48,224 nucleotides of DNA, from the NCBI GenBank assembly GCA_947063855.1, contig CAMSTW010000016.1, positions 1 to 48,224 of the forward strand. Reading direction: 5' to 3'. This DNA comes from an uncultured Dorea sp. Lineage in GTDB: Bacteria; Bacillota; Clostridia; Lachnospirales; Lachnospiraceae. Position 1 is the first letter of the stretch. The number at the start of each line of letters is the position of its first letter. Below, one piece after another: positions 19,926 through 46,274 of this stretch. The notes under the pieces are model-generated. The model was not told the origin of the DNA and did not search any database. It saw nothing but the letters and a program-made list of their open reading frames with translations. A program made the position numbers and the translations under genes.

Positions 19926-19960
19926 ACATAATCGTACCCAAAATCAGAAGGAGGCAGTCT

Positions 19961-24946: not shown

Positions 24947-24950
24947 GAGA

Positions 24951-25936: not shown

Positions 25937-25965
25937 TTCAGAATTATATTTTGCTAAAGTATAGA
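25937..25965 (+). promoter_or_regulatory. Possible promoter of the GH3 gene
   Basis: TTCAGA (25937-25942) and TATAGA (25960-25965) are separated by 17 bases. Both boxes are imperfect, which fits an activator-dependent promoter beside a divergent AraC gene. AAGGAGCAGG precedes ATG 25996. Confidence 0.35.
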
Positions 25966-25995
25966 TAAACAAATATCATTTTAAGGAGCAGGGAA

Positions 25996-28140: not shown

Positions 28141-28145
28141 CAGCA

Positions 28146-28176
28146 AGGGGCCTTTTGAGTAATTCGGAAGGCCTTT
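28146..28176 (+). terminator. Hairpin after the GH3 gene (weak terminator)
   Basis: AGGGGCCTT (28146-28154) pairs with AAGGCCTTT (28168-28176) with two G-T pairs. Only TTTG follows, so it may be an mRNA-end hairpin or partial terminator before the kinase gene. Confidence 0.4.
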
Positions 28177-28268
28177 GACAGCGTATAAGTCTATAGCGAA
28201 AAGCTGCTGCAGACAGCTGTATCCGCAGGGTTCCGGGACGGACAGTTTCCAGAAGCAGGGGGGATTCT

Positions 28269-29861: not shown

Positions 29862-31441
29862 GAGTATTATTGGTAGATGATGAGCAGGTTATCGTGCAGG
29901 GACTTATGGCATTGATTGACTGGGAGAAGGAAGGGTTCGTGATTGCAGGGACAGCCTCGGACGGGAAGGAGGCGCTCCGGTTTATAGAGCATAATCGTGT
30001 CGACTTGATCATGGCAGATATAAACATGCCGGAAATCTCTGGATTGCAGCTTTTGCAGAAGATTCGTACAGAGAAGCTTTCAGACGCATTTTTTATAATA
30101 TTAAGCGGGTTCGCGGAGTTTTCCTATGCGCAGGAGGCCATCAGGTATAAATGTACTGATTATATACTAAAGCCGATTAAGAAAGAGCAGCTTATGGATA
30201 CGCTGCATAAGATCAGTGAAATGACTGCGGATAAGGAAGCGAGGAATCGAACGAACCGGAAGATGGAGCGGGAATATCTTGCGAGGAATCTCATCGCAGT
30301 AATAAATGGAAAATATGACGAAGTTAATCTGGAAATTATCAGGAAGCAGGTGTGTTTTGAAGGCAGTATCCGCTATGTTGAGATAGAACTGAACGAGAAT
30401 CTGCTTGATGAAGAGATTGCGGATGAAGAGAAACGGACATATCAGAGGCGTTTATCAGAGGTCTGTGCGGATTATCTGGGAGATTATGCGGATCATTGTG
30501 TCTTCGATGTGTCTGGCAAGGAGAACATATATGATATTGGTTTTGTATACTGCGACTATATGGCGGAGAAGGATTTCAGGACTGAGAAAAATTATCTGGA
30601 AAATTTTCTGGCCTATCTGCGTGAAGAAGCGGATCTGCCCGTGATTATGCTGGTCGGGAAAAAGGTGGATGATATTCAGAATATAGCAAAATCCTACAGT
30701 ACGGCCTGCATACTAAGATCCTGCCAGGGCTTTAAAAATCTAAAAGATATCTATTATTATGATGAAGAGATACAGGTGTCCGGCAGCGGAATCGTTCTGT
30801 GCAAAAAGGAGATTGACGCTTTGCTGCAGTCTATAGAACAGAATCAGGAAACGGAAATTGTAAAAAACGTAGATGATTTTTTTGAAGAAATACAGAAGAT
30901 GGGGGTTGGGGGAGACAAGAGTTTAAATATAGATTATCTGCTTTTCCAGCTGATTCATCTTGCAACACAGCAGGACGATAATGTAAATCAGGAAGAAATA
31001 TTGAGACTTATCAGCGAGCAATCTTTTAAAGAGGGGCTTACACGGGGGAGTAAGGCGCATTTATTAAGGTTCTCACGAGAGTATGCCTTATATCTCGCAC
31101 AGCTGCGCCAGAATGTATCAGGAGGTATTCTGACAGAGATTGAGAAGGAGATCAGGTTGCATTTTGCAGAGAATCTGACTCTAAAGGGGCTGAGCGAGAA
31201 ATATTATGTGAACAGCGCGTATCTGGGACAATTGTTCCGGAAAAAATATGGATGTTCATTCAAGGATTATCTGAACCGGACCAGAATTGATGCGGCGGCG
31301 TTCCAGCTTGTCCAGACAGATAAGAAGATCTATCAGATAGCGGAAGAAGCAGGGTACCATAATCTTGATTATTTTGTCAGCCGTTTTATTGATGCAAAGG
31401 GCATTACCCCTGCGAAGTACCGGCGTAATGCAAGAATATAG
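29855..31441 (+). CDS. YesN-type response regulator with AraC output domain
   Basis: The product is 528 residues from ATG 29855, which follows GGAGGTGG and overlaps the kinase stop (ATGTTAA). The receiver domain begins MLRVLLVDDEQVIVQGL, with phospho-acceptor Asp55 in VDLIMADINMPEISG and the conserved Lys in YILKPIKKEQ. A middle region of about 280 residues without clear motifs follows. The C-terminal AraC pair of helix-turn-helix motifs is LTLKGLSEKYYVNSAYLGQLFRKK and KKIYQIAEEAGYHNLDYFVSRF, ending in ITPAKYRRN. It would activate the downstream transporter promoter and perhaps the xylanase when phosphorylated by the partner kinase. Confidence 0.92.
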   Translation: MLRVLLVDDEQVIVQGLMALIDWEKEGFVIAGTASDGKEALRFIEHNRVDLIMADINMPEISGLQLLQKIRTEKLSDAFFIILSGFAEFSYAQEAIRYKCTDYILKPIKKEQLMDTLHKISEMTADKEARNRTNRKMEREYLARNLIAVINGKYDEVNLEIIRKQVCFEGSIRYVEIELNENLLDEEIADEEKRTYQRRLSEVCADYLGDYADHCVFDVSGKENIYDIGFVYCDYMAEKDFRTEKNYLENFLAYLREEADLPVIMLVGKKVDDIQNIAKSYSTACILRSCQGFKNLKDIYYYDEEIQVSGSGIVLCKKEIDALLQSIEQNQETEIVKNVDDFFEEIQKMGVGGDKSLNIDYLLFQLIHLATQQDDNVNQEEILRLISEQSFKEGLTRGSKAHLLRFSREYALYLAQLRQNVSGGILTEIEKEIRLHFAENLTLKGLSEKYYVNSAYLGQLFRKKYGCSFKDYLNRTRIDAAAFQLVQTDKKIYQIAEEAGYHNLDYFVSRFIDAKGITPAKYRRNARI

Positions 31442-31486
31442 GTATATATCTATATTTTACCATGTTATATCCTATAATTTGCCTGA

Positions 31487-31515
31487 TTGAAAAAATCTTC
31501 CTTTTTTAATAGAAT
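31487..31515 (+). promoter_or_regulatory. Promoter of the xylo-oligosaccharide transporter operon
   Basis: TTGAAA (31487-31492) and TAGAAT (31510-31515) are separated by 17 bases in an A+T-rich stretch. Transcription would start near 31522, followed by the AGAGGAGG ribosome site and ATG 31550. Confidence 0.55.
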
Positions 31516-31549
31516 TTTAATATATTAACGGAAAGAGGAGGATATTAAT

Positions 31550-33214
31550 ATGAAAAGAAGACGTCTGATAGCACTATTGCTTACAGCAGTTACTGCAACA
31601 TCTCTGGTTACTGGCTGCGGCAAGGGAAAAGACAAGTCATCAGAGGATGGAGTGAAAGAATTCACGGCATTTTTTGCCGTACCTAATCCGGAGATCAATG
31701 ATGACAATGAGATTCAGCAGATGATAGCAGAAAAGACAGGGGCAAAGGTGAAGGAAACCTGGCTTACCGGACAGACTGCGGAGGAAGCGGTTGGTACGTT
31801 GATAGCCGGCGGGGAGTATCCGGATTTTATAGAAGGCGCAGGCGGACAGAAGCAGTTGTATGACGCGGGTGCGCTGGTGGCTCTTGATGATTATCTTGAC
31901 GATTATCCTAATATCAAGGAGTTCTTTACAGAGCAGGAGTGGGATTCCCTGCGTCAGGATGACGGACATATCTATTGGATTCCGCAGTTCTCGAACATAT
32001 ACGGAGAAGAGAGGACATGTGAACATAACGATGAGGCATTCTGGATTCAGACCAGAGTACTGAAATGGGCCGGATATCCGGAGGTAAAGACGCTGGATCA
32101 GTACTTTGACCTGATTGCGAGGTATAATGAGGAGAATCCGACGATGGAAGACGGTACGGCGAACATTCCTTATACAATCATGTGTGAGGACTGGAGATAT
32201 TTCTGTCTGGAGAATGCGCCGATGTTTCTTGACGGATATCCAAATGATGGATGCTGTCTTGTGGATCCGGAGACACACAAAGTGTCGGATTATAATACGA
32301 CGCCTACGGCGATTGCCTATTTCAAGAAACTTAATGAAGAATACAAGAATGGACTCGTAGACAGGGAATCATTTACCCAGACATATGATGAATATATTGC
32401 GAAGCTGTCAAGCGGGCGTGTGCTTGGTATGGTAGATCAGTGGTGGGATTTTGCATTCACCGCAGGAGACGCGATCAAGTCGGCAGGACTTGACAAACAG
32501 GGGTGCAGCTATGTTCCGCTGCCGATTACGATTGATGAGGGAATTACGAATCAGTGGCATAATTCCGGCGGTGTAGTGAATGCCAGTTCCGGGCTTGCAA
32601 TCTCTGTAAGTTGTGAGGATGTAGAGGGAGCGTTGAAGTTTGTAGATGATTTGTTGGAACAGGATATACACGATCTTCGGTTCTGGGGTGTGGAAGGTGT
32701 AGATTATCAGGTAGACGATGAAGGCGTATTCGGCCGTACAGATGAAATGAGAACCCAGTGTGCAGATACTGCGTACAAGGCTTCTCATCTGTGTACATAT
32801 TCTTATTTCCCACAATGGCTTGGAACAAGCCGCGATGGAATCAATGCCATGAAACCGGCAGAGCAGGAAGGCGAGTTCTATGACGCGCTGAAGGACGACG
32901 TAAAGGAATGCTTTGATGCATACGGAGCCAAGTCATATGTAGATATGCTCGGGAAAAATGATTCACCGGGATCCTGGTATCCGATGTGGAGTTATTCGAA
33001 TACATATACAACTGATACAGACGCAGGAATGGCATGGACGAAAATCGGTGAAGTTAAGCATGAATATCTTCCGAAGGTGGTTATGGCAGATAATTTTGAC
33101 AGCGCATGGAAAGATTATATGAAGAAATATGAAGAATGTAAACCGGAGGATTTCCTTGAGGATCTGCAGAAGGAAGCGGACCGCAGGATAAAAGAAGCAG
33201 AAAAATACAAGTAG
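31550..33214 (+). CDS. Sugar-binding lipoprotein of an ABC importer (xylo-oligosaccharide)
   Basis: This 554-residue extracellular solute-binding protein of the LplA-like group has a lipoprotein signal MKRRRLIALLLTAV ending in the lipobox LVTGC, so it is lipid-anchored at Cys23. The mature part contains typical blocks such as GTLIAGGEYPDF, GALVALDDYLDDYPNIKEFF and DDGHIYWIPQF. Tyr- and Trp-rich segments (DQWWDFAF, YFPQW) fit oligosaccharide stacking. It is followed by two permease genes and preceded by the two-component pair. No ATPase gene is nearby, which is usual for importers sharing an MsmX-type ATPase. The xylo-oligosaccharide assignment comes from the surrounding enzymes. Confidence 0.88.
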   Translation: MKRRRLIALLLTAVTATSLVTGCGKGKDKSSEDGVKEFTAFFAVPNPEINDDNEIQQMIAEKTGAKVKETWLTGQTAEEAVGTLIAGGEYPDFIEGAGGQKQLYDAGALVALDDYLDDYPNIKEFFTEQEWDSLRQDDGHIYWIPQFSNIYGEERTCEHNDEAFWIQTRVLKWAGYPEVKTLDQYFDLIARYNEENPTMEDGTANIPYTIMCEDWRYFCLENAPMFLDGYPNDGCCLVDPETHKVSDYNTTPTAIAYFKKLNEEYKNGLVDRESFTQTYDEYIAKLSSGRVLGMVDQWWDFAFTAGDAIKSAGLDKQGCSYVPLPITIDEGITNQWHNSGGVVNASSGLAISVSCEDVEGALKFVDDLLEQDIHDLRFWGVEGVDYQVDDEGVFGRTDEMRTQCADTAYKASHLCTYSYFPQWLGTSRDGINAMKPAEQEGEFYDALKDDVKECFDAYGAKSYVDMLGKNDSPGSWYPMWSYSNTYTTDTDAGMAWTKIGEVKHEYLPKVVMADNFDSAWKDYMKKYEECKPEDFLEDLQKEADRRIKEAEKYK

Positions 33215-33241
33215 TATCTGCTTGAAACCGGAGGTGAAAAT

Positions 33242-34201
33242 ATGTCTGCGATAACAAAGAAAAAGAAGAAACAAGTTGAGAACGAACCTAAGGTACCGAT
33301 TACCTGGAAGGAGATTAAGAAGCAGAAGGTGCTGTTATTCTGGTCGGCGGTTATAGTCTTATATGGAATCATCTTTTATTACCTTCCATTAGGCGGGTGG
33401 CTGATGGCATTCCAGAATTATAAGCCGGCAAAGGGACTGCTCCATTCAGAATTTGTAGGGCTGGAGAAGTTCCGGAGATTGTTTTCTGACGATACTTTCG
33501 TGCGGGTTATCAGAAATACATTGGCAATGGGTGTTATAAACCTGGTTGTAACGTTTGTAATGGCGATTATATTTGCAATATTACTGAACGAAATACGTCT
33601 GAAGAATACGAAGAAAGTCATACAGACCGTATCTTATCTGCCGCATTTTCTGTCATGGATTATCGTTACAGGTATTTTGCATGATGCATTAAGCGGGACC
33701 GGAATCATAAATGAGCTTTTAAGAAATCTGCATATTATCGATCATTCGATTGACTTTTTTGCACATCCTTCGTATTTCTGGCCGATTGTAGCTTTTGCGA
33801 ATGTGTGGAAGGAGACCGGCTGGAATGCTATCATCTATCTGTCTGCGATTACGGCGATAGATCCGTCGTTATATGAAGCGGCGGCGATAGACGGAGCAGG
33901 AAGATTTGGTAAGATCAGATACGTAACCCTTCCCGGAATTAAGTCTACGATTATTATCCTGCTGTTGATGAATGTCGGTAATGTGCTGAACGCAGGATTT
34001 GAGATTCAGTACCTGTTGGGTAACGGGCTTGTGAAGAGTGTGTCTGAGACCATAGACATCTATGTGCTGAAATGGGGTATCAGCCAGGGTGATTATGCAA
34101 TCGGTACAGCGGCCGGTATATTCAAGAGCGTCGTTAGTATCCTTCTGATTGTAATTGCGAATCAGGCTGCGAAACGAAGCGGTGAAGAAAGATTGTATTA
34201 G
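33242..34201 (+). CDS. ABC sugar permease, LplB-like
   Basis: This 319-residue membrane protein has six hydrophobic segments after a basic N-terminus (KKKKKQ). It belongs to the LplB/MalF-type binding-protein-dependent permeases. The ATPase-contact EAA loop is YEAAAIDGAGRFGKIRYVTLPGI, near residue 212-234. The binding-protein gene lies 27 bases upstream and the second permease 14 bases downstream, so the three are one operon. It would form a heterodimeric channel with the next product. Confidence 0.92.
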   Translation: MSAITKKKKKQVENEPKVPITWKEIKKQKVLLFWSAVIVLYGIIFYYLPLGGWLMAFQNYKPAKGLLHSEFVGLEKFRRLFSDDTFVRVIRNTLAMGVINLVVTFVMAIIFAILLNEIRLKNTKKVIQTVSYLPHFLSWIIVTGILHDALSGTGIINELLRNLHIIDHSIDFFAHPSYFWPIVAFANVWKETGWNAIIYLSAITAIDPSLYEAAAIDGAGRFGKIRYVTLPGIKSTIIILLLMNVGNVLNAGFEIQYLLGNGLVKSVSETIDIYVLKWGISQGDYAIGTAAGIFKSVVSILLIVIANQAAKRSGEERLY

Positions 34202-34215
34202 AGGAGGAATGAGTC

Positions 34216-35100
34216 ATGAAAAATAAGAAAACTGGTGCAGACAGAGCATTCTCCGTGTTTATTGCAATTTTTATGATCATATTTGTAGTTGTCACTCTGT
34301 ATCCGGTTCTAAATACTCTGGCAATCTCGTTCAACGAGGGTACAGATGCTTTGAAGGGCGGAATTTATCTTTGGCCAAGGAAGTTTACGTTAAAGAATTA
34401 TGTTACAATATTGCAGAAGAATAATCTTATAACAGGAGCAGTTGTTACAGTTGCGCGAACCGTGATAGGAACATTGCTGTCTCTGGTGCTTAATGCAATA
34501 TTAGCTTTTATTGTCAGCAGGCCGAGATTCTTGTTCCGCAAACAGCTGTCACTGTTCTGGGTTATTACGATGTATGTAAACGGTGGTATGATTCCGACAT
34601 TTATCCTGTATAAGAATCTGCATCTTACGAATACATTCTGGGTATATATTGTCCCGGGCGTAATCAGCGCATTTAATATGCTTGTAATACGTACATATAT
34701 GAACGGACTTCCGAATAGTCTTGTGGAATCGGCGCAGCTTGACGGGGCCGGCTATACTACGATTTTTATTAAGATAATATCACCTTTATGTAAGCCGGTA
34801 TATGCAACAGTTGCATTGTTTGTTGCGGTCGGGCAGTGGAATTCATGGTTTGATGCAATGCTCTATAATCGTATGAGCGGGGAATATACGACATTACAGT
34901 ACGAATTGATGAAGTTGCTGTCGTCGGTAACCAACCAGGGCGCTTCGGCTGAATCTATGAAGAATGCAGTGGGGGCGGTAACGCCTACTTCTGTAAGAGC
35001 GGCGGCAACGATTATTACGATGCTTCCCATTATCTGTATCTATCCGTTCCTGCAGAATTATTTTGTAGCAGGATTAACACTTGGCGGTGTCAAGGAGTAA
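34216..35100 (+). CDS. ABC sugar permease, LplC/YtcP-like
   Basis: This 294-residue membrane protein has six hydrophobic segments. It starts with a YtcP-like N-terminus (VTLYPVLNTLAISFNEGTDALKGGIYLWPRKFTLKNY) and has the EAA loop VESAQLDGAGYTTIFIKIISPLCKP near residue 171-196. The C-terminus LQNYFVAGLTLGGVKE is the family end motif. GAGGAGG precedes ATG 34216. It is the last gene of the xylan locus, followed by a strong terminator. No ATP-binding subunit gene is present here. Confidence 0.93.
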   Translation: MKNKKTGADRAFSVFIAIFMIIFVVVTLYPVLNTLAISFNEGTDALKGGIYLWPRKFTLKNYVTILQKNNLITGAVVTVARTVIGTLLSLVLNAILAFIVSRPRFLFRKQLSLFWVITMYVNGGMIPTFILYKNLHLTNTFWVYIVPGVISAFNMLVIRTYMNGLPNSLVESAQLDGAGYTTIFIKIISPLCKPVYATVALFVAVGQWNSWFDAMLYNRMSGEYTTLQYELMKLLSSVTNQGASAESMKNAVGAVTPTSVRAAATIITMLPIICIYPFLQNYFVAGLTLGGVKE

Positions 35101-35296: not shown

Positions 35297-35337
35297 AAAA
35301 TGCATGAAAATGCATATAAATGTTTGACAAAATGCAC
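35297..35337. promoter_or_regulatory. Phased AAAATGCAT direct repeats at the second sugar operon promoter
   Basis: AAAATGCAT occurs at 35297-35305 and 35307-35315 (10-base spacing), and a variant AAAATGCAC at 35329-35337 overlaps the -35 box. Direct repeats on one helix face next to and over a -35 suggest an operator, possibly for the ROK regulator at the end of this operon. Confidence 0.5.
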
Positions 35338-35352
35338 AACATAATATATAAT
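35324..35352 (+). promoter_or_regulatory. Near-consensus sigma-A promoter of the second sugar operon
   Basis: TTGACA (35324-35329) and TATAAT (35347-35352) are separated by 17 bases, a consensus match. Transcription near 35359 gives a leader of about 200 bases before ATG 35560. Such a strong promoter normally needs a repressor, and a ROK repressor gene is present downstream. Confidence 0.85.
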
Positions 35353-35367: not shown

Positions 35368-35404
35368 CTTTTTAAATATATTTGTAGAAAGTATATTTAA
35401 AAAG
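35368..35404 (+). promoter_or_regulatory. Perfect A+T-rich hairpin at the 5' end of the leader
   Basis: CTTTTTAAATATA (35368-35380) and TATATTTAAAAAG (35392-35404) are perfect 13-base arms over an 11-base loop, beginning about 10 bases into the predicted transcript. It could be an operator dyad in DNA or a protective 5' stem in RNA. No T run follows, so it is not a terminator. Confidence 0.6.
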
Positions 35405-35559: not shown

Positions 35560-36594
35560 ATGAAGAGAATGAAGAGATTATTATCCGTGTTGTTGTGTGT
35601 TGGTATGGTAGCGTGTATGGCGATTGGCTGTAACAGTGAGTCAGGATCTTCGGACAGTGGGGGTTCGGGGGATTCAGGAGACAAATCATCCGATGACGGA
35701 GAGAAGATTAAGATTGCATTTGTAATCAGCGATCTGTCGAACGAGGTATTCCTGGAACTGATGGAAGCCTGTGAGAAAGAGGCGGAAGCGAACGGCGCGG
35801 AATTTATCTTCAAGGAGGCGCAGGAGGTTCCGGATAAGATCACCGAGATTGAGAATCTGGCGAACGCAGGGTACGACGTAATCTTAAGCCATGTATCTGA
35901 CCCTGCTGCCATGCAGCCGGCGATTGCCGAGGCGCAGTCCAAGGGATGTAAGTTCATTGCCTATGATACAGATACAGAGACCAGCGACGCGTTCTTTGGT
36001 GCGGATAATACGGAACTGGGGAAACAGATTGGCTACATGGCGGCAGACTGGATCAATGAGACCTTTGATCCTTCCGAGAAGGTTAAGGTCGGACTGGCAA
36101 ACTATCCAGAATTCAACTTCCTGGTAGTAAGAGAGGACGGTATCCGGGCGGCGCTTAAAGAGAAGGCTCCGAACGCAGAGGTAGTTGTGGCACAGCAGGC
36201 AGGCTTCGTTCCGGAAGGTGTAGATGTCGGCGAAGTGTGGCTTCAGTCTCAGCCGGATCTGAATGTGATCTGCGGGATCAACGACTCTGGTATCGTTGGG
36301 ATCTATCAGTCCTTCATTGCAGGCGGCGTAGACAAGAACAAGGAAGACATGGGGTTCTTTGGATGTGACGCGACCGGAGAGGCGATGAAGCTGATCAATG
36401 AGCATGGCATCTTCCGCGGAACGATCTCTACGAATCTGGTGAACGTAGCTCCGGATTTCATCGGAACATCCATCGCACTGGCGAAGGGCGAGGAGGTAGA
36501 GCATGATTTCTATTTCCCGATGACAAGAATCCAGTATAACGAAGAGACCGGACAGGCAGAAGAAGTCGGAGAAGCGATTGACATTAACAAGTAG
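35560..36594 (+). CDS. Ribose/xylose-type sugar-binding lipoprotein (CUT2 importer)
   Basis: This 344-residue lipoprotein has a signal peptide ending in the lipobox MAIGC (Cys24), followed by a Ser/Gly/Asp-rich linker. The mature domain is a periplasmic-binding fold of the LacI/RbsB type: IKIAFVISDLSNEVFLELM, then DKITEIENLANAGYDVILSHVSDPAAMQPAI, CKFIAYDTDT and NVICGINDSGIVG. It precedes a RbsA-type ATPase and a RbsC-type permease gene, completing an importer for a monosaccharide-size ligand (pentose, polyol or similar). AAGGAGG is 8 bases before the ATG. A stable hairpin after the stop may raise its expression over the ATPase gene. Confidence 0.9.
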   Translation: MKRMKRLLSVLLCVGMVACMAIGCNSESGSSDSGGSGDSGDKSSDDGEKIKIAFVISDLSNEVFLELMEACEKEAEANGAEFIFKEAQEVPDKITEIENLANAGYDVILSHVSDPAAMQPAIAEAQSKGCKFIAYDTDTETSDAFFGADNTELGKQIGYMAADWINETFDPSEKVKVGLANYPEFNFLVVREDGIRAALKEKAPNAEVVVAQQAGFVPEGVDVGEVWLQSQPDLNVICGINDSGIVGIYQSFIAGGVDKNKEDMGFFGCDATGEAMKLINEHGIFRGTISTNLVNVAPDFIGTSIALAKGEEVEHDFYFPMTRIQYNEETGQAEEVGEAIDINK

Positions 36595-36634
36595 ACGGTA
36601 AGATGTGACTGATATTGAAAAATAGTCTATAGAG

Positions 36635-36705
36635 AAGGGGCTGGCGGAAAACGTATATTCCGGCAATGTGTATTGTCGGAATATCATGTTGGCCGGCAGC
36701 CTTTT
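36635..36705 (+). promoter_or_regulatory. Large intercistronic hairpin after the binding-protein gene
   Basis: An inner 13-pair stem, 36655-36667 with 36672-36684 (one G-T pair, tetraloop GTGT), is enclosed by AAGGGGCTG (36635-36643) pairing with CAGCCTTTT (36697-36705). Such hairpins between binding-protein and ATPase genes stabilise the upstream message or partly stop transcription. Confidence 0.65.
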
Positions 36706-36728
36706 AAGGTAAGGTGGTGTAGGAGTCA

Positions 36729-38210
<1,482 letters not shown>

Positions 38211-38221
38211 GGAGAATTTGT

Positions 38222-39190
38222 ATGAAGAAAGCATTAGATATATTAAAGAAGCATTCTGTTGAAGCAGTATTATTCGTGTTGATGCTTATGTTTACCATAG
38301 TAAAGGGAACGGTATTTCTGAACATCAATAATATTATTACGATCTTAAGACAGAGCTCGATCCTGGGAATCATGTCTATCGGTATGATGTTCTGTATGTT
38401 GTCCGGCGGACTGAATCTGGCGGTGGGTTCTATGGTCTCTCTTGTGACGGTAACGTCGGCGGTGTTCATGACTTCCATGAATGTCCCGTGGCCGGCGGCG
38501 TTCCTGATCAGTGTTGTGATATGTACCTTCTCCGGGTGGGTCACAGGGTTCATTATTGTCAAGACAAGGATCTGGCCGATGATCGGCTCGCTGGCCATGC
38601 AGACCATCCTGTCCGGCGTGGCGTATATCGTCTGCGGAGGACTGCCGATCTATGACCTTCCCAAAGGTTCGATCGTATTCGGCCAGGCGAATATCGGGGT
38701 GGTTCCGCTGCCGGTTATCATTCTGCTGCTGGTCGCTGTGATCTCGGCTTTCATTCTGAACAAGACATATTTCGGACGGCATTTCTATGTATCCGGAAGT
38801 AATGTGGAGGCGGCAAGGCTCTCTGGTATTAACACCAGCCGGATCTGTATCATGTCTTATGTGATCAGCGGTTTCCTGTGCGGTATCGCAGGCGTGATCA
38901 TGACGGGGCGGGTAAGCTCCGGCCAGCCGGCGGCAGGAAAAGGGATGGATATGACCTGTCTGACGGCGGTCGTGCTGGGCGGCGTCAGCATGAACGGCGG
39001 GGAAGGCAAGGTATCCAAGGTTGTGGTCGGCGTATTTATCCTGGGCGTGCTGAAGAACGGTATGACGATCATGAATGTGGATGAGTATACACAGATGATC
39101 GTGGAAGGTCTGATCTTCCTGTTTGCGGTATGTTTCGACAGCCTGCAGAGAATCCTGAGTGAGAGGACCGGGAAGAAGAAGGCGGCATAG
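38222..39190 (+). CDS. CUT2-type sugar ABC permease (RbsC/XylH-like)
   Basis: This 322-residue protein has about 8 to 10 hydrophobic segments. It carries the BPD_transp_2 motifs: SIGMMFCMLSGGLNLAVGSMVSLV near residue 57-80, the FYVSGSNVEAARLSGINTSR loop, and the LTAVVLGGVSMNGGEGKV block near the end. AAGGAGAA precedes ATG 38222. It acts as the dimeric membrane channel of the importer. The following 192-base gap before the next start contains a purine-rich tandem repeat. Confidence 0.93.
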   Translation: MKKALDILKKHSVEAVLFVLMLMFTIVKGTVFLNINNIITILRQSSILGIMSIGMMFCMLSGGLNLAVGSMVSLVTVTSAVFMTSMNVPWPAAFLISVVICTFSGWVTGFIIVKTRIWPMIGSLAMQTILSGVAYIVCGGLPIYDLPKGSIVFGQANIGVVPLPVIILLLVAVISAFILNKTYFGRHFYVSGSNVEAARLSGINTSRICIMSYVISGFLCGIAGVIMTGRVSSGQPAAGKGMDMTCLTAVVLGGVSMNGGEGKVSKVVVGVFILGVLKNGMTIMNVDEYTQMIVEGLIFLFAVCFDSLQRILSERTGKKKAA

Positions 39191-39204
39191 ACGAATGCGA
39201 AAGC

Positions 39205-39375
39205 AGCGCAGAGAAGCATAAAGATTACAGAGAGATGTGAGAAAGAGAGAAGCGTAAGAGAAGAAAGAAGCGCAGAGAAGCATAAAGACTACAGAGAGAT
39301 GTGAGAAAGAGAGAAGCGTAAGAGAAGAAAGAAGCGTAAGAGAACTAGAAAAGCATAAGAGAGATAGAGAAGAGA
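39205..39375 (+). repeat. 64-base purine-rich tandem repeat between permease and esterase genes
   Basis: Two nearly identical 64-base units (39205-39268 and 39269-39332; one clear C/T difference, in AAAGATTACAG versus AAAGACTACAG) are followed by a decayed third copy to about 39375. The forward strand is almost all A and G, with internal GAGAAGC and GAAGCGTAAGAGAA elements. No frame is open through it, and it has no CRISPR-like spacers. Confidence 0.85.
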
Positions 39376-39409
39376 AAGAGGCATGGAGAAGAGAAAGAAG
39401 GTGATGCAG

Positions 39410-40402
39410 ATGGGAACATATAGAAAATATTTGGAGCCGGCGTATGGGGAGAAATCATTCTCCGTTGAGATCCCTGCGCCGGAGGATATCGATATAGAGC
39501 ATCCGCAGATATGGAGGAATAAGCATATCCCGGAGTCTGCGGCGGGGATTCTGGCCGCTGTGAAAAGGACCGGCTGTTATGACGAGATCATGACCATAGA
39601 GACCACGGATACATACCTGGAACGGGAGTCAGAGCGGATACCGCTTAGGCTCTATCATCCGGGCGGAGAGGGGCCGTTCCCGGTCCTGGTGTTCTACCAT
39701 GGCGGCGCATTCATGTACAATACCTTTGCCATATATGAGTATGTGACAAGATATATTGCGAAATACGGCGGTGCGCTGGTGATCGCGGTTGAGTACCGGC
39801 TTGCCCCCGAACACAGGTGTCCGGTGGGAAGGGAGGATGCTTACGCCGCACTGGAATGGGCCGCGGCACACTGTGGGGAATATGGCGGAGATGCGTCGGA
39901 TATCACGGTCTGCGGGGACAGCGCGGGCGGTAATTTTGCGGCGGGGATCTCTCTGATGGCGCGGGACCGGAAGGGTCCTGGGATACGCAGACAGATTATG
40001 ATCTATCCGGTGACAAGCTTTGTGTTTGAGGAGCAGCCTTACTCGGAAAAACGATATGAGAAGGGATATTTTCTTGAGTACAATTCCATGAAAGACCCTC
40101 TGGCGCCGTATTTTGCGCCGGGTGATGAGAAGGCCCGGCGGGATCCTTATAATTCACCGCTGCTGGCAAAAGACCTGACGGGACTGCCGGAGGCTCTGTT
40201 CCTCTCGGCAGAGTGCGATCCGCTTCTTGACCAGGGTCTCATGTATGCGGCGCGGCTTGAGGACGCGGGCGTACCGGTGGAATATCACATATTCGAAGGG
40301 ATGATACATAGTTTCCTGAATTATACGTATGAGAAATCCTTTGCGTGCCTGGATATGATTTGCGGGGCAGTATCGAAGCGGCGGCATAAGGACGGATGCT
40401 GA
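39410..40402 (+). CDS. Alpha/beta-hydrolase fold-3 (HSL-type) esterase, cytoplasmic
   Basis: The product is about 330 residues from ATG 39410 (AAGAAGGTG upstream); in-frame ATGs at 39383 and 39404 are alternatives. It is a hormone-sensitive-lipase-like esterase without signal peptide. The oxyanion motif is VFYHGGAFMYN, the nucleophile Ser is in VCGDSAGGNFAAG, the acid Asp is in LSAECDPLLDQG and the His is in FEGMIHSFLNY. EYRLAPEHRCPVGREDAYAAL is the usual lid-proximal block. Members hydrolyse short-chain acyl or acetyl esters. Its place inside an operon for sugar import and phosphorylation implies that an acylated sugar or polyol is its substrate, which is inference. Confidence 0.85.
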   Translation: MGTYRKYLEPAYGEKSFSVEIPAPEDIDIEHPQIWRNKHIPESAAGILAAVKRTGCYDEIMTIETTDTYLERESERIPLRLYHPGGEGPFPVLVFYHGGAFMYNTFAIYEYVTRYIAKYGGALVIAVEYRLAPEHRCPVGREDAYAALEWAAAHCGEYGGDASDITVCGDSAGGNFAAGISLMARDRKGPGIRRQIMIYPVTSFVFEEQPYSEKRYEKGYFLEYNSMKDPLAPYFAPGDEKARRDPYNSPLLAKDLTGLPEALFLSAECDPLLDQGLMYAARLEDAGVPVEYHIFEGMIHSFLNYTYEKSFACLDMICGAVSKRRHKDGC

Positions 40403-40495
40403 GACGTCAGAGGAAGGATAGCCGGTGCGGAAATAGAAGATGCAGGACAGCAGTTTGGAAGAGCAGTTCAGGAAGATAAGATAGGAGATGATGGA

Positions 40496-41155
40496 ATGGA
40501 TAAGAAGAGAATCCTTGTTTTCGGAGATTCCAATACCTGGGGGTGGAATCCGGTCAATACCCTGAAACCGCCTCTTGTGAGGTGGAGTGACGAGGAGCGT
40601 TATACAGGGGTCATGCAAAGAGAGCTGGGGGACGGATATACGGTGATCACGGAAGGGCTGAATGGAAGGACGACGGTATGGGACGATCCCATCGAGGAAC
40701 ACCGCTGCGGGAAGGCCCAGCTGATTCCGCTTCTGGATTCCCATGCGCCTCTGGATCTGGTTGTTATCCTGCTGGGGTCAAATGATCTGAAGCGGCGGTT
40801 CTGCGTGACGCCCAGGGATATTGCGGAGGGAGCGGGACTGCTTGCGGCGAAGACAATGGGGCAGGTCTATGATTTCCGTGACTGCCGTCCCAGGGTACTG
40901 TTGATCTGTCCGCCAAGGCTGGGGGAGGTCGGGAAGACTCATTTTGCTCCTGTATTTGGAGGAAATGAAGAGAAATCGACCATGCTCGCGCCATACTATA
41001 AGGAAATGGCCGATCTGCACGGGGTGCATTTTCTGAATGCGGACGAGATTGTGAAAAGCAGTGAGACGGACGGGCTTCATTGGGATGTGGATCAGCATGA
41101 GAAGCTGGGAAAGGTATTGGCGGCTGAAATTGAAAAAATATTTGGTAGGGCTTGA
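40496..41155 (+). CDS. SGNH/GDSL hydrolase (arylesterase-like), cytoplasmic
   Basis: This is a 219-residue single-domain SGNH enzyme without signal peptide. Block I is ILVFGDSNTWGWNPV with nucleophile Ser12, block II Gly is in EGLNGRTTVWDDP, block III is VVILLGSNDLKRRF and the catalytic Asp-His pair is in DGLHWDVDQHEKLG. The GDSxTWGW start and GxxxRTT segment place it with the arylesterase/acyltransferase branch related to the mycobacterial MsAcT enzyme. AGGAGATG precedes ATG 40496. It is the second, structurally unrelated esterase in the operon, and its 3' end overlaps the FGGY kinase start. It would remove small acyl groups from the imported substrate. Confidence 0.85.
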   Translation: MDKKRILVFGDSNTWGWNPVNTLKPPLVRWSDEERYTGVMQRELGDGYTVITEGLNGRTTVWDDPIEEHRCGKAQLIPLLDSHAPLDLVVILLGSNDLKRRFCVTPRDIAEGAGLLAAKTMGQVYDFRDCRPRVLLICPPRLGEVGKTHFAPVFGGNEEKSTMLAPYYKEMADLHGVHFLNADEIVKSSETDGLHWDVDQHEKLGKVLAAEIEKIFGRA

Positions 41156-42638
41156 TAACGGCGGAACCTCGGTCAAGGCGGCGGTGTTCGATCTGAGCGG
41201 GAAACTGCTTGCAAAGGCAGGGCAGTTTACGGAGAATATCACGCCGAAGCCGGGCTATGTAGAGCGGGATATGGAGAAACTCTGGAAGGCGAACTGCGAG
41301 TGTGTGAAAAGGGCGGTCGAAAGCGGCGGCGTTTCCCCGGAGGCGGTGGCGGGTATCGCGGTGTGCGGACACGGGAAGGGTCTGTATGCGTGGGGAAAGG
41401 ATGGGAAACCTGCATACCACGGGATCAGTTCGACGGACGGCCGGGCCTGGAAGTATCCGGTTAAGTGGAGAGAAGAGAAGATCTGGCAGGAGATCTATCC
41501 GCAGATCTGCCAGGAACTTATGGCGTGCCAGCAGGTGTCTCTGCTGGCGTGGCTTAAGGATCATGAGCCGGAGGTGTATGCGGATATCCGGTGGGTGTTC
41601 TCGGTGAAGGACTATATCCGTTACCGGTTGACGAATGAAGCATACAGTGAGATGACGGACATCTCCGGATCGGGACTTATGGATATCGGTAAGGCGGCCT
41701 TCGACCGGGAGATGCTTGAGAAGCTGGGGATCGGAGAGGCGTATGATAAACTGGCGCCGGTGAGATATTCCAGCGATCTGTGCGGACATCTTACGAAGGA
41801 GGCGGCGGAACTTACGGGGCTTTTGGAAGGAACGCCGGTGGCGGGCGGTATGTTTGACATTGACGCCTGTGCCATTGCTTCGAATATTGTATCTGCAGAA
41901 AATATATGTACGATTGCCGGTACGTGGAGTATCAACGAATATATTTCCAGGACGCCCGTGACGGACGGCAGTGTCGCGATGAATTCTTTGTACGCGATCC
42001 CGGGGTATTATCTGATTGAAGAGTGCAGCGCGACTTCGGCGGGGAATCTGGAATGGTTCGTCGGGGAATGTATGCAGGATTATGCGGGGAGGGAAGGCAA
42101 AGCCGTCTATGATGCAATCAATGATATGGTATCCGGGGTTCCTGCGGATGAATGCGAAGTGTATTTCCTGCCGTTCCTGTATGGATCCAATGCGCATCCT
42201 CTGGGGAAGGGGAGTTTTGTGGGGCTTACGACCTATCACACAAGGGCGCATATGCTGCGGGCGGTTTTTGAGGGAGTTGCTTTCTCGCATAAGAAGCATA
42301 TAGACCGATTACTGGCCTCCCGGGATGTTCCGGATGTGATCCGTATGGCAGGAGGAGCCGTAAAGTCCGCGGTATGGGTGCAGATGTTTGCGGATGTCCT
42401 GGATATGCCCATAGAGACGGTGGAGGCAAAGGAGCTGGGCGCGCTGGGGTGTGCGATGGCCGCCGCGGTTGCCGCGGGAATCTATACGGATTATACGGAG
42501 GCGGCCCGGAACATGGTACACATTAACGAGAGAATCCTCCCGGTTCCGGAGCATGCGGCGGTGTATGTCGGGAAATATCGGAAATATCTGGCAGTCCAGG
42601 ATGCTCTGGACGGCGTCTGGGGGCAGTTCGAGGTATGA
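41130..42638 (+). CDS. FGGY carbohydrate kinase (L-xylulose kinase-like)
   Basis: The product is about 502 residues. No ATG fits; the frame runs back to 41061 inside the esterase gene. TTG 41130 gives a normal FGGY start (Lys-Lys-Tyr-Leu-Val-Gly-Leu-Asp-Asn-Gly-Gly-Thr) and overlaps the esterase by 26 bases, suggesting coupled translation. Motifs are VGLDNGGTSVKAAVFD (phosphate loop), VCGHGKGLYAWG, PVAGGMFDIDACAIAS with the catalytic Asp, ICTIAGTWSINEY, and RMAGGAVKSAVWVQMFADVL in the second domain. This pattern is closest to the L-xylulose/L-gulonate kinase branch (LyxK, SgbK). The neighbouring 3-epimerase-like gene supports L-xylulose as substrate, yielding L-xylulose 5-phosphate. Confidence 0.85.
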   Translation: MKKYLVGLDNGGTSVKAAVFDLSGKLLAKAGQFTENITPKPGYVERDMEKLWKANCECVKRAVESGGVSPEAVAGIAVCGHGKGLYAWGKDGKPAYHGISSTDGRAWKYPVKWREEKIWQEIYPQICQELMACQQVSLLAWLKDHEPEVYADIRWVFSVKDYIRYRLTNEAYSEMTDISGSGLMDIGKAAFDREMLEKLGIGEAYDKLAPVRYSSDLCGHLTKEAAELTGLLEGTPVAGGMFDIDACAIASNIVSAENICTIAGTWSINEYISRTPVTDGSVAMNSLYAIPGYYLIEECSATSAGNLEWFVGECMQDYAGREGKAVYDAINDMVSGVPADECEVYFLPFLYGSNAHPLGKGSFVGLTTYHTRAHMLRAVFEGVAFSHKKHIDRLLASRDVPDVIRMAGGAVKSAVWVQMFADVLDMPIETVEAKELGALGCAMAAAVAAGIYTDYTEAARNMVHINERILPVPEHAAVYVGKYRKYLAVQDALDGVWGQFEV

Positions 42639-42648
42639 GGTATAAAGC

Positions 42649-42735
42649 GAAGCTTGAGGTATAGCGATTTGGGATATAAAGCGGTGTGCGGGGCATAAGT
42701 GAAGCTTGAGGTATAGAGTGAAGTTCAAGATATAG
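42649..42735 (+). repeat. Degenerate GAAGCTTGAGGTATAG repeats before the dehydrogenase gene
   Basis: GAAGCTTGAGGTATAG occurs at 42649-42664 and exactly at 42701-42716 (52-base period), with a decayed copy GAAGTTCAAGATATAG at 42720-42735. Shorter pieces such as GAGGTAT and GATATAAAGCG fill the gap. It is a second repeat-filled intergenic region within the same operon. Confidence 0.75.
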
Positions 42736-42749
42736 AAGGAGGAAATTAT

Positions 42750-43835
42750 ATGGGCACAGTAGGCAGTACGCCAAAGACAATGCGGGCTTTGGTGGCATAT
42801 GGGAAGGATGACTATAGATTTGAACAGGAATACCCCGCGCCGGTATGCGGGGAGGATGATATCATCATCAAGACAGAGGCGTGCGGAATCTGCGCGGGGG
42901 ATCTGAAGTGCAATCACGGTGCGGCGATGTTCTGGGGAGATGAGATACAGGCAGCATGGGTGAAACCTCCCTTTGTCCCAGGGCATGAGTTCATGGGGCA
43001 TATCGTGGAGATGGGGGAGAATGTGAAGGGATATGAGCTGGGAGAGCGGATTATTGCGGACCAGATCGTACCCTGCGGCGAGTGCCGCTTCTGCAGGGAC
43101 GGGCACTACTGGATGTGCGAGCCCCACAATATCCTGGGATTCCAGAGTGAGAACAACGGCGGGATGGCAGAATATGTGAGGTATACGAAGAACTGTGTGC
43201 TCAGCAGGGTGCCGGAGGAGATGAGCCTGAATGATGCGCTGCTGATCGAGCCATATGGCTGTTCCAAGCATGCAGTGGACCGGGCGTCTGTTACAAATGA
43301 GGATGTCGTGGTAATCTCCGGCGCAGGGACGCTTGGCCTTGGCATGGTTACCTATGCAAGGATGAAGAATCCCAGGAAACTGATCGTTCTGGATATGCAG
43401 AACCGGCGGCTTGATAAGGCGAAGGAATTTGGCGCAGACCTGGTGTTCAATCCCCGGGAGGTGGATGTGGACCGGGAAATTAAGGCGTTGACCGGGGGAT
43501 ATGGCTGTGATATCTATATCGAGGCAACCGGCAATCCGGCAAGTGTGGTACAGGGGCTTAAGATGATCCGCAAGCTTGGCCGGTTTGTGGAGTTCAGTGT
43601 ATTTGGCAGTGAGACGACGGTAGACTGGTCCATCATCGGCGACCGGAAGGAGCTGGATATCCTGGGAGCGCACCTAAGTCCGTATGCTTATCCATTTGTC
43701 ATTGAGAATATCGCGAACGGGAAATTGAAGACAGAGGGCGTGGTGTCCTCCACTTTTCCGATAGAAGAGTGGGAAAAAGGGTTCGAATATGCGACCGGTA
43801 AGTATGGGGATTTTAAGGTTGCACTTACATTCTGA
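42750..43835 (+). CDS. Zinc-dependent alcohol (polyol) dehydrogenase, MDR family
   Basis: This 361-residue medium-chain dehydrogenase has catalytic zinc ligands in EACGICAGDLKC and PGHEFMGHIVEMGE, and four structural-zinc Cys in CGECRFCRDGHYWMC. The Rossmann motif is VISGAGTLGLGMV, followed by an Asp (VLDMQNRR) that indicates NAD over NADP. The segment YGCSKHAVDRA lies where family members place the lid of the active site. The overall pattern resembles polyol dehydrogenases of the threitol/erythritol or pentitol type. Next to an L-xylulose-type kinase, oxidation of a pentitol (xylitol or L-arabitol) to L-xylulose is the simplest reading. GAAGGAGG precedes ATG 42750. Confidence 0.87.
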   Translation: MGTVGSTPKTMRALVAYGKDDYRFEQEYPAPVCGEDDIIIKTEACGICAGDLKCNHGAAMFWGDEIQAAWVKPPFVPGHEFMGHIVEMGENVKGYELGERIIADQIVPCGECRFCRDGHYWMCEPHNILGFQSENNGGMAEYVRYTKNCVLSRVPEEMSLNDALLIEPYGCSKHAVDRASVTNEDVVVISGAGTLGLGMVTYARMKNPRKLIVLDMQNRRLDKAKEFGADLVFNPREVDVDREIKALTGGYGCDIYIEATGNPASVVQGLKMIRKLGRFVEFSVFGSETTVDWSIIGDRKELDILGAHLSPYAYPFVIENIANGKLKTEGVVSSTFPIEEWEKGFEYATGKYGDFKVALTF

Positions 43836-43955
43836 TAAAGTTCTTATAATCTGATGCAAGTAGGGGCGGCATCTTGCTCCATTCGGTCAGAAGTTCGGTT
43901 TTTGGACGGATGGAGCAGAGGGCAAATACGAAAAGGAAAACGGAGATATGGGGCT

Positions 43956-44843
43956 ATGAAGAGGTATGCATTAGGATTGTATGAAAAGGCAATGCCGTCT
44001 GTTCTTACATGGGAAGAAAAGCTTGAAACCGCTAAAGATGCAGGATATGATTTCCTGGAAATCAGTATTGATGAGAGTGACGAGAAGATTTCGCGTTTAT
44101 ATATGAGCCGTGAGGAGCTGATCCGTCTGCGGCATACGATTGAAGCGGTCGGACTTCCGATTGAAACCATGTGCCTGAGCGCGCACCGGAAGTATTCCAT
44201 GGGCAGCAGCGAGGAGAAGCGGGCCTTCTATGGAATGGAGATTATGGAACGGGCGATCGGCTTCGCAGAGGAGCTGGGAATCCGGATCATACAGCTTGCG
44301 GGTTATGATGTATATTATGAGGAGTCTACCCCGCAGACGGTCAGACGGTTTGAAGAAAACCTGAGAAGAGCCACGGAGATGGCGGCCCGCTCCGGGATCC
44401 TGCTGGGGTTCGAGACGATGGAGACGGAGTTCATGAATACGGTGGGAAAGGCCATGAAATATGTAAACGCCATGAATTCCCCGTACCTGAATGTATATCC
44501 GGACGTTGGGAATATCACAAATGCAACGTGCAGATACTGTATAGATCTTGGGGAGGATATAGAGAAAGGAACGGGCAGGATCATAGCCGTTCATTTGAAA
44601 GAAACCAGACCGGGAGTATTCCGGGAGGTGCCCTTTGGGGAGGGGCATGTGGATTTTGAACGGGCCATTGCTCTGATGTGGAAAGCAGGAGTAAGGAGAT
44701 ATGTGGTTGAATTCTGGTACGCCGGAAATGCCGGCTGGAAGGAGATACTGATTCAGAACCGCAGCAGGCTGGGGAAGCTGCTTGACGCAGAAGCGTCTTG
44801 TACAGCGTCTCCGGCGCTTAGCAGCGTGGCGGGCTTTGCCTAA
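43956..44843 (+). CDS. L-ribulose-5-phosphate 3-epimerase-like protein (UlaE/SgbU type)
   Basis: The product is 295 residues from ATG 43956; the frame open to 43854 has no site there. It is a TIM-barrel xylose-isomerase-like epimerase with the UlaE-type start RYALGLYEKAMPSVLTWEEKLETAKDAGYDFLEIS. The four metal ligands are seen as Glu in GILLGFETME, Asp in YLNVYPDVGNI, His in IIAVHLKET and Glu in RYVVEFWYAG, and PFGEGHVDFE is the conserved loop. UlaE interconverts L-xylulose 5-phosphate and L-ribulose 5-phosphate. The AraD/UlaF-type 4-epimerase needed to reach D-xylulose 5-phosphate is not in this window. It is the last gene before a terminator. Confidence 0.9.
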   Translation: MKRYALGLYEKAMPSVLTWEEKLETAKDAGYDFLEISIDESDEKISRLYMSREELIRLRHTIEAVGLPIETMCLSAHRKYSMGSSEEKRAFYGMEIMERAIGFAEELGIRIIQLAGYDVYYEESTPQTVRRFEENLRRATEMAARSGILLGFETMETEFMNTVGKAMKYVNAMNSPYLNVYPDVGNITNATCRYCIDLGEDIEKGTGRIIAVHLKETRPGVFREVPFGEGHVDFERAIALMWKAGVRRYVVEFWYAGNAGWKEILIQNRSRLGKLLDAEASCTASPALSSVAGFA

Positions 44844-44946: not shown

Positions 44947-44999
44947 AGAGACTGCTGAAAAAGAAGAGAACCAAGTTCTGCAGTCTCTTTGTTGTTTTT
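44947..44999 (+). terminator. Intrinsic terminator of the second sugar operon
   Basis: AGAGACTGC (44947-44955) pairs with GCAGTCTCT (44980-44988) over a 24-base loop, followed by TTGTTGTTTTT. The 294-base gap before the ROK gene otherwise holds only possible regulatory repeats (AATAATGTCAAA and AATTATTGTCAAA in 45023-45070). Confidence 0.7.
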
Positions 45000-45137: not shown

Positions 45138-46274
45138 ATGAAAAAAGAGAAAACAATCAGTATCAGTGAAATTAAACATAACAACAGAAGAATGATATTG
45201 GAATACTTAAGGAAGCGGCATACTCTTTCGAGGACGGAGATTGTATATGATCTGCATATCAGCTTTCCGACTGTAATCCAGAATCTCCAATACCTGACGG
45301 AACTGGGAGTTGTGGATGATTCCAAGCGGATTTCCAACACGGGGGGAAGGAACGCCGTTGCATATACCTTCCTGCAGAATGCGAAGCTGGCGATCGGAGT
45401 TGATGTGGCGGAGTTCCGTATCAAGGCAGTACTGGTTAATCTGACCGGCGAAGTGATTGATATCATCCGCAGGGACAAGAGGTTCTGTATGGAAGAGGAT
45501 TATCTAAGGGAGATTGGCCGTGTGGTTGATGAGATGGTGACGAAGCATCAGATCTTGGCAGATAATCTTCTGGGAGTTGGAATCGCTGTGCCGGGGATCG
45601 TGGATGAGGCGGGCGAGTATGTGGTTTACGGCGGCACGCTGAATTTCACAGGCGCCACGAAGGAGCAGTTTACGAAGTATATCCGTTATCCCAGCCGGCT
45701 GCTGCACGACGTCTACGCCGCAGGATGTGCGGAAGCCTGGGGGAATCCGGAGGATGATAATGTCTTCTATATCATGCTGAATAATACCATCGGCGGTTCT
45801 TTTAGGACCGGGGACAGCCTGTATGTGGGAGATACCGGTAAGAGCGGAGAGATCGGACACACGACGGTAGAGACGCATGACGGAAAGGTATGTTACTGTG
45901 GAAGACGGGGATGCCTGGAAGTGTATTGCAATGCGGTGCAGCTTGCGAAGCATACGGATGGAAGGCTGGATGTGTTCTTTGACGAGATCCGTAAGGGGAA
46001 TCCCACGATGGAGAAGATCCTGGATGAATACCTGCGGTATCTGGCCGTTGCCGTTAATAATGTGCGGCTGCTGTTCAACTGCAAGATTGTTGTCGGGGGA
46101 TATGTCGGAGCGTATATGGATCTGTATAAGGAGAAGCTGACCGGGCATGTCAATGAGCTGAATCCCTTTGGAGAGGACGCCGCGGAGTATCTGCTGTCCT
46201 GCAAGTACAAGGTGGAGTCTACGGCCGCGGGGGCTGCGATTGTGTTTATAGATGAATATCTGTATAATATTTAG
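45138..46274 (+). CDS. ROK-family transcriptional repressor (NagC/XylR type)
   Basis: This is a 378-residue protein. The N-terminal winged helix (ISEIKHNNRRMILEYLRKRHTLSRTEIVYDLHISFPTVIQNLQYL pattern, residues 8-55) is followed by a ROK domain. The ATP-binding DxGxT region is replaced by GVDVAEFRIKAV, so it is a regulator without sugar kinase activity. Zinc-type Cys residues are in CYCGRRGCLEVYC near residue 253, and NNTIGGSF near residue 215 is the sugar-site block. It lies 3' of the pentitol-type operon after a terminator, with its own leader. It is the best candidate to repress the strong promoter at 35324, possibly binding a pentose or pentitol. Confidence 0.88.
   Translation: MKKEKTISISEIKHNNRRMILEYLRKRHTLSRTEIVYDLHISFPTVIQNLQYLTELGVVDDSKRISNTGGRNAVAYTFLQNAKLAIGVDVAEFRIKAVLVNLTGEVIDIIRRDKRFCMEEDYLREIGRVVDEMVTKHQILADNLLGVGIAVPGIVDEAGEYVVYGGTLNFTGATKEQFTKYIRYPSRLLHDVYAAGCAEAWGNPEDDNVFYIMLNNTIGGSFRTGDSLYVGDTGKSGEIGHTTVETHDGKVCYCGRRGCLEVYCNAVQLAKHTDGRLDVFFDEIRKGNPTMEKILDEYLRYLAVAVNNVRLLFNCKIVVGGYVGAYMDLYKEKLTGHVNELNPFGEDAAEYLLSCKYKVESTAAGAAIVFIDEYLYNI

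What the first reader, a model, noticed from the sequence alone, without database searches (positions are those of the whole stretch)
35560..44843. Importer, two cytoplasmic esterases, kinase, dehydrogenase and epimerase: a candidate route for acylated pentitols or L-xylulose
One forward run holds a CUT2 importer, an HSL-type esterase, an unrelated SGNH esterase, an FGGY kinase of the L-xylulose kinase type, a zinc polyol dehydrogenase and a UlaE-type 3-epimerase. The kinase, dehydrogenase and epimerase fit the order pentitol to L-xylulose to L-xylulose 5-phosphate to L-ribulose 5-phosphate. Neither esterase has a signal peptide, so acyl groups would be removed after import. This implies that the transported ligand is an ester of a small sugar or polyol, a substrate class I do not know for CUT2 systems. 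The AraD-type 4-epimerase must come from elsewhere in the genome.
Basis: partly seen in the sequence, partly recalled or inferred. Interest (0 to 1): 0.8.

Follow-up and report, generated by a model that had tools for sequence, protein, structure and literature searches.

The report
Sugar-ester importer with two inner esterases
A gut-type bacterium carries an operon that seems built to import a small sugar or sugar alcohol still wearing acyl groups, strip them off inside the cell and burn the core through L-xylulose; relatives of the importer repeatedly sit beside such esterases, which hints at a little-studied class of nutrients.

Summary
The genes are as described: CUT2 importer, HSL esterase, SGNH esterase, FGGY kinase, zinc dehydrogenase and UlaE-type epimerase in one forward run, plus a ROK regulator downstream. 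The interpretation splits in two. (1) The L-xylulose half holds up: of eight E. coli FGGY kinases the window kinase is closest to LyxK (37% identity, 333 bits; next 189). Its relatives (80 loci) stand within 4 kb of the epimerase (50/80), the dehydrogenase (20/80) or an AraD relative (15/80); one locus (L026) has all of them in a run. The AraD 4-epimerase is elsewhere in this genome. (2) The esterases do not travel with that module (0 of 81 distinct kinase loci). They travel with the importer: the close HSL relatives lie beside a CUT2 importer in 4 of 5 testable loci against 0 of 20 more distant HSLs; SGNH relatives directly follow a CUT2 gene in 7 of 60; 11 of 17 binding-protein relatives are esterase-linked, including the best seven. 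HSL-linked and SGNH-linked importers form separate groups. Import of an acylated sugar or polyol followed by deacylation in the cytoplasm is the best reading; ligand and acyl group are unknown. The combination with the L-xylulose module was seen only here.

The parts
35324..35352 (+). sigma-70-type promoter match TTGACA-17-TATAAT upstream of the binding-protein gene
   Evidence: 12 of 12 positions; a consensus match only
35368..35404 (+). palindrome just after the promoter match (arms of 16 with 5 between), possible operator or leader hairpin
   Evidence: 94% complementary; function inferred
35560..36594 (+). CUT2 substrate-binding lipoprotein
   Evidence: Peripla_BP_4; best relatives in 397 family genomes are the HSL-linked ones
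36729..38210 (+). CUT2 duplicated ATPase
   Evidence: two ABC_tran stretches; groups with HSL-linked importers in a tree
38222..39190 (+). CUT2 permease
   Evidence: BPD_transp_2
39383..40402 (+). HSL-family (Abhydrolase_3) esterase, no signal peptide seen
   Evidence: CUT2-linked relatives
40496..41155 (+). SGNH esterase of the arylesterase type, no signal peptide seen
   Evidence: CUT2-linked relatives
41130..42638 (+). FGGY kinase, closest to E. coli LyxK (L-xylulose kinase)
   Evidence: TTG start inferred
42750..43835 (+). zinc-dependent medium-chain dehydrogenase, candidate pentitol dehydrogenase
   Evidence: ADH_N and ADH_zinc_N, zinc motifs; substrate inferred from neighbours
43956..44843 (+). 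UlaE-type L-ribulose/L-xylulose 5-phosphate 3-epimerase
   Evidence: above NCBIfam cut-offs; 44% identical to UlaE, 43% to SgbU
44947..44988 (+). hairpin (13-base arms, 16-base loop) followed by a T-rich stretch, likely terminator
45138..46274 (+). ROK-family regulator, candidate regulator of the operon
   Evidence: ROK; ROK genes also lie beside the importers of L186 and L257

Best explanation
The operon takes up a small O-acylated sugar or polyol intact, most likely an acylated pentitol or another precursor of L-xylulose, through a CUT2 ABC importer. In the cytoplasm two unrelated esterases (HSL and SGNH) remove the acyl groups, probably with different position or acyl preference. The freed pentitol is oxidised by the zinc dehydrogenase to L-xylulose, phosphorylated by the LyxK-like kinase to L-xylulose 5-phosphate, turned by the UlaE-type 3-epimerase into L-ribulose 5-phosphate, and by the AraD encoded elsewhere in this genome into D-xylulose 5-phosphate. 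Shown here: gene identities, affinity to LyxK and UlaE, recurrent grouping of the kinase with epimerase, dehydrogenase and AraD, and linkage of both esterase types to CUT2 importers. Inferred: the ligand, the acyl group, the order of reactions, and that both esterases act on the imported ligand.
For: Kinase closest to LyxK: 333 bits over 98% of the length against 189 or less for seven other E. coli FGGY kinases and 196 or less for eight of its own genome. In 80 relatives' loci: epimerase within 4 kb in 50, dehydrogenase in 20, AraD relative in 15; L026 has a CUT1-type importer, dehydrogenase, epimerase, kinase and AraD in one run. AraD present on contig C117 of the own genome, above cut-off. 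Close HSL relatives sit beside a CUT2 importer in 4 of 5 testable loci (3 directly after the permease) against 0 of 20 distant HSLs, Fisher p = 0.0004. SGNH relatives directly follow a CUT2 gene in 7 of the 60 best matches and lie within 2 kb in 3 more. Reverse test from the binding protein: 11 of 17 matches esterase-linked, the best seven all so. Polyol-type dehydrogenases stand in four of the six close HSL loci.
Against: The full combination was seen only here; 0 of 81 distinct kinase loci have either esterase, and among the six close HSL loci only L256 has a full-length FGGY kinase, not of the LyxK type (162 bits), and L257 a frontier piece at 50 bits. 53 of 60 SGNH relatives do not directly follow a CUT2 gene, and the nearest one (57%, L129) is not near one. 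The dehydrogenase scores highest with threonine dehydrogenase and IolM models, under cut-off, so polyol specificity is unproven. 14 of 80 kinase loci show none of the partners tested. The HSL-linked importer group has only moderate support (89/84).
Confidence: 0.45

Rival explanations
1. The importer carries a free pentitol or pentulose for the L-xylulose route, and the esterases are accessory: they clear acylated by-products or act on an unrelated ester and are merely co-transcribed.
For: The kinase module normally lives without esterases (0 of 81 distinct loci), in Sporofaciens musculi even beside a CUT2 importer without them (L018). Six of 17 relatives of the binding protein have no esterase, five of these six with a medium-chain dehydrogenase nearby.
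Against: The closest relatives of importer and HSL are paired independently of the kinase module, in 4 of 5 testable loci, and L186 carries a further esterase (Pfam Esterase, 74 bits, cut-off 22) in the same run.
Confidence: 0.3
2. The esterases are lactonases: a dehydrogenase or the importer delivers a sugar lactone, the esterases open it, and the acid goes through a keto-acid kinase and decarboxylation as in the E. coli yia or ula routes.
For: LyxK and SgbU of E. coli lie in an operon for 2,3-diketo-L-gulonate; the mannitol-dehydrogenase-family enzymes of L187 and L257 score best with fructuronate reductase, under cut-off.
Against: No relative of the SgbH/UlaD decarboxylase or of YiaK in the window or in the 85 kinase loci fetched; the rest of the own genome was not searched for them.
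Confidence: 0.1
3. The operon serves xylan side chains: acetyl-xylose or feruloyl-arabinose made by the upstream xylan cluster is imported, de-esterified, and burnt mainly by the general xylose and arabinose genes; the L-xylulose module is a passenger.
For: A cluster with GH10 plus CBM9, two GH43, a GDSL enzyme and GH3 lies just upstream; araA and araD are in the genome.
Against: No xylose or arabinose isomerase in the window or in the kinase loci; the other close HSL loci showed no such glycosidases to my eye in the stretches read, which is not a domain search.
Confidence: 0.1

Closest known systems
Beta-manno-oligosaccharide loci of Faecalibacterium prausnitzii with intracellular acetylesterases CE2 and CE17 (PMC8262883, passages read)
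   Same: ABC import of an acetylated glycan, then deacetylation in the cell by two esterases with different position preference
   Different: Ligands are oligosaccharides; the esterases are of CAZy families CE2 and CE17, and no link to L-xylulose is described in the passages read
E. coli yiaK-sgbE operon with LyxK, SgbU and SgbE (annotation read)
   Same: LyxK-type kinase, 3-epimerase and 4-epimerase in the order of the route
   Different: Periplasmic-protein-dependent Na+ symporter and a decarboxylase instead of a CUT2 importer, dehydrogenase and esterases
Kinase-dehydrogenase-epimerase modules of Lachnospiraceae, for example Faecalicatena contorta L008 and Dorea L012
   Same: The same kinase (66-70% identical in L008 to L018) and dehydrogenase, mostly with the epimerase
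   Different: Where an importer was read beside them it is mostly of the BPD_transp_1 type; no esterases

Membership tests
CUT2 sugar ABC importer | Peripla_BP_4-type binding protein, duplicated ATPase and BPD_transp_2 permease | tested here: met
   all above Pfam cut-offs; two ABC_tran stretches
CUT2 sugar ABC importer | known sugar ligand | not testable with these tools
   all NCBIfam equivalog scores for the binding protein are far under cut-off (best RbsB 53 against 337)
L-xylulose kinase (LyxK) | closer to LyxK than to other FGGY kinases | tested here: met
   333 bits against 189 or less for XylB, LsrK, AraB, GlpK, FucK, YgcE and 48.9 for RhaB; the tree joining LyxK to the group is a quick one with long branches flagged
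L-xylulose kinase (LyxK) | activity on L-xylulose | not testable with these tools
   no assay; no NCBIfam model reaches its cut-off (best XylB 230 against 380)
UlaE/SgbU 3-epimerase | curated family score | tested here: met
   TIGR00542 292.7 against 272.15 and PRK13210 336.5 against 200
Hormone-sensitive-lipase esterase family | Abhydrolase_3 fold with GDSAG nucleophile and Asp-His | tested here: met
   210 bits against 25; GDSAG, DPLLD, GMIH present, oxyanion motif HGGA; best NCBIfam model LipP1 272 against 350, not reached
SGNH arylesterase family | GDSL-type catalytic blocks and similarity to solved arylesterases | tested here: met
   Lipase_GDSL_2 54.9 against 32.9; blocks present; matches 5hoe and 2q0q at 1e-41 or better
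Zinc polyol (pentitol) dehydrogenase | curated polyol dehydrogenase score | tested here: inconclusive
   best NCBIfam scores are threonine dehydrogenase and IolM, under cut-off; solved matches include ketose reductase and sorbitol dehydrogenase behind threonine dehydrogenases

The most novel reading that the evidence does not exclude
Lachnospiraceae hold a class of esterase-coupled CUT2 importers, arisen at least twice (HSL type and SGNH type), that take up O-acylated monosaccharides or sugar alcohols intact; in this operon the route for an acylated pentitol via L-xylulose is complete save for a shared AraD.
Probability: 0.35. Interest if true: 0.75.

Novelty: new variant of a known kind. Interest (0 to 1): 0.58.

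Why it matters
Deacetylation in the cell after ABC import is described for oligosaccharides (PMC8262883). If CUT2 importers do the same for single acylated sugars or polyols, acyl-sugars become a private nutrient of gut bacteria, and the binding proteins listed here can be screened for them directly. It would also widen LyxK-like kinases, which a 2011 family study placed only in a few groups of Gammaproteobacteria (PMC3245297, passages read), to relatives in Bacillota, Spirochaetota, Synergistota and others, a possible marker of L-xylulose use in anaerobes.

Tried and rejected
Esterases as fixed partners of the kinase-epimerase module: rejected, 0 of 81 distinct loci. LsrK (autoinducer-2 kinase), the best solved-structure match of the kinase: rejected, since LyxK scores 333 against 189 bits. 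Ascorbate or diketogulonate route: no decarboxylase relative in the window and 85 kinase loci. More HSL relatives outside the family: none at 1e-52 in a 391-genome sample of the class, own genome apart; the other genomes of the genera of G239 (0 of 15) and G085 (0 of 3) lack one. The 401-residue protein beside the kinase in Treponema and others: no Pfam or NCBIfam match, no usable solved-sequence match, weak fold model (mean pLDDT 63.9) with cupin and phosphomannose-isomerase-like matches. Paper searches on importer-linked esterases and on L-xylulose kinase or xylitol listed no description of this system; they cover open-licence PMC papers only, and I read listings plus passages of three papers. 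The threitol search was not followed up.
Full report
What is there. The run of genes is real and complete. It starts 460 bases after the end of an upstream permease gene of a CUT1-like importer (33242-34201 is BPD_transp_1; 34216-35100 gave no Pfam match at 1e-5 and is assigned by eye), behind a 12-of-12 promoter match and a palindrome, and ends at a hairpin with a T-rich tail. Two starts need correction: kinase at TTG 41130 and epimerase at ATG 43956. A ROK-family regulator follows.

The pathway half. I gathered 80 loci that encode relatives of the kinase (332 stretches encoded one, the best 80 were kept). Within 4 kb of the kinase the 3-epimerase stands in 50 of 80, the dehydrogenase (over 400 bits) in 20 of 80, an AraD/UlaF relative in 15 of 80 (17 of 80 anywhere in the stretch); 14 of 80 show none of the features tested, and many stretches are short. 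The kinase is nearest to LyxK among eight E. coli FGGY kinases: 333 bits, then LsrK 189, XylB 126, YgcE 103, GlpK 100, FucK 77, RhaB 49, AraB 46; eight other FGGY kinases of its own genome give 196 or less (two further weak matches were not included). The tree that joins LyxK to the group is a quick one with long branches flagged by the program, so I rest on scores more than on the fork. No relative of SgbH/UlaD or YiaK was found in the window or in the 85 kinase loci fetched, which speaks for free L-xylulose as substrate.

None of the 81 distinct kinase loci (85 fetched, four contigs twice) has an SGNH relative at 1e-5 or an HSL relative of 100 bits; one 24-bit HSL hit in L062 is dropped as noise. 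Only 44 of the 85 had 3 kb on both sides of the kinase. Of 11 genus mates none has a close HSL; one has a distant match of 81 bits. Five of the 11 have the kinase at 68-70% identity, one of them as a partial match.

The esterase half, for an ester ligand. In 299 family genomes the HSL has four close relatives (44-59% identity) and 25 distant ones at 1e-40; a 397-genome draw adds two close ones. I read around all six close ones and 20 of the 25 distant ones. L186, L187 and L189 have binding protein, ATPase, permease and HSL in direct succession; L257 has a mannitol-dehydrogenase-family gene between permease and HSL; L188 begins inside the HSL and cannot be tested; L256 has no CUT2 nearby but a sodium symporter (Pfam SNF) and an FGGY kinase. 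That is 4 of 5 against 0 of 20 (Fisher p = 0.0004; two of the 20 have under 1 kb of DNA upstream). Dehydrogenases stand in L186 (two, zinc type), L187 (Mannitol_dh), L188 (zinc type) and L257; L186 also has a third type of esterase in the run (Pfam Esterase).

The SGNH esterase has 121 other matches in 299 genomes. Of the 60 best, 7 directly follow a CUT2 gene (six a permease, one an ATPase), 3 more lie within 2 kb, and four had under 1.5 kb of DNA upstream. Three of these ten (L138, L140, L141) belong to a more distant CUT2 type with two permeases. The nearest relative by sequence (57%, L129) is not beside an importer, so SGNH linkage is a tendency, not a rule.

The reverse test started from the binding protein without reference to esterases: 17 matches besides itself at 1e-40 in 397 genomes, with only five candidates scored per genome. 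The three best are the HSL-linked ones. In all, 4 matches lie at HSL loci (two in one locus), 7 at SGNH loci (two from one genus) and 6 at neither; the best seven are all esterase-linked. In an ATPase tree of 31 importers picked from these loci, the HSL-linked ones form one group with the window (support 89/84, moderate) and nine SGNH-linked ones another (96/95), with a tenth outside. So two importer lineages have taken on two different esterases, and the window has both kinds.

Mechanism. The simplest reading is import of an acylated small sugar or polyol and deacylation inside, with two esterases of different preference, as CE2 and CE17 act on imported acetylated manno-oligosaccharides in F. 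prausnitzii (PMC8262883, passages read). That the core is a pentitol follows only from the kinase module of this one operon. The acyl group is open; acetyl or feruloyl are guesses from the upstream xylan-type cluster, not data.

What weakens it. The combination was seen once. Presence in single species of a genus fits gene transfer, so the operon may be a recent assembly whose parts are not tuned to one ligand. Family scores and neighbourhood cannot show a substrate. Relatives were sampled, not counted in full. The paper searches cover open-licence papers only, and listed no description of such a system.

Verdict. Observation confirmed; interpretation partly supported, with the esterase link moved from the catabolic module to the importer. 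It is a new variant of a known principle rather than a new kind of system.

Noticed in passing
L082:5796-7028 and relatives in L037, L040, L041, L042, L044, L046, L047, L049, L051, L053, L063, L064, L067, L077, L084: A conserved protein of about 400 residues without a Pfam or NCBIfam match stands near the LyxK-like kinase in 16 of 80 loci, many of them Treponema; a weak fold model resembles cupin-type phosphomannose isomerases, so it may be the aldose isomerase that feeds the kinase.
   Followed up: partly
L138, L140, L141: SGNH relatives beside a two-permease CUT2-type importer with a RhaM-like mutarotase and URO-D-type proteins: possibly acylated (and methylated) deoxy sugars (RhaM and URO-D confirmed by Pfam in L138 only).
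   Followed up: partly
L186:6985-7833: A third esterase type (Pfam Esterase) between two zinc dehydrogenases, in the same run as a CUT2 importer and an HSL.
   Followed up: partly
window 39199-39344: Purine-rich direct repeats (two 64-base copies, 97% alike, and shorter ones) fill the gap between permease and HSL genes; a similar repetitive stretch lies at 42640-42735 between kinase and dehydrogenase (by eye).
   Followed up: no
window 16123-35100: Xylan-type cluster upstream: GH10 with CBM9, two GH43, a GDSL enzyme, GH3, an AraC regulator, a two-component pair and a CUT1-like importer whose binding protein gave no Pfam match.
   Followed up: partly
L018 (Sporofaciens musculi): In a genus mate the kinase module lies a few kb downstream of a CUT2 importer without esterases, whose ATPase groups with non-esterase importers.
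   Followed up: partly
L008-L087: LyxK-like kinases in Bacillota, Spirochaetota, Synergistota, Bacteroidota, Acidobacteriota and others, wider than the few gammaproteobacterial groups given in the 2011 family study; several are from metagenome bins, whose taxonomy may be wrong.
   Followed up: partly
window 35368-35404: A 16-base-arm palindrome right after the promoter match of the operon, a candidate operator for the ROK regulator at 45138-46274.
   Followed up: no
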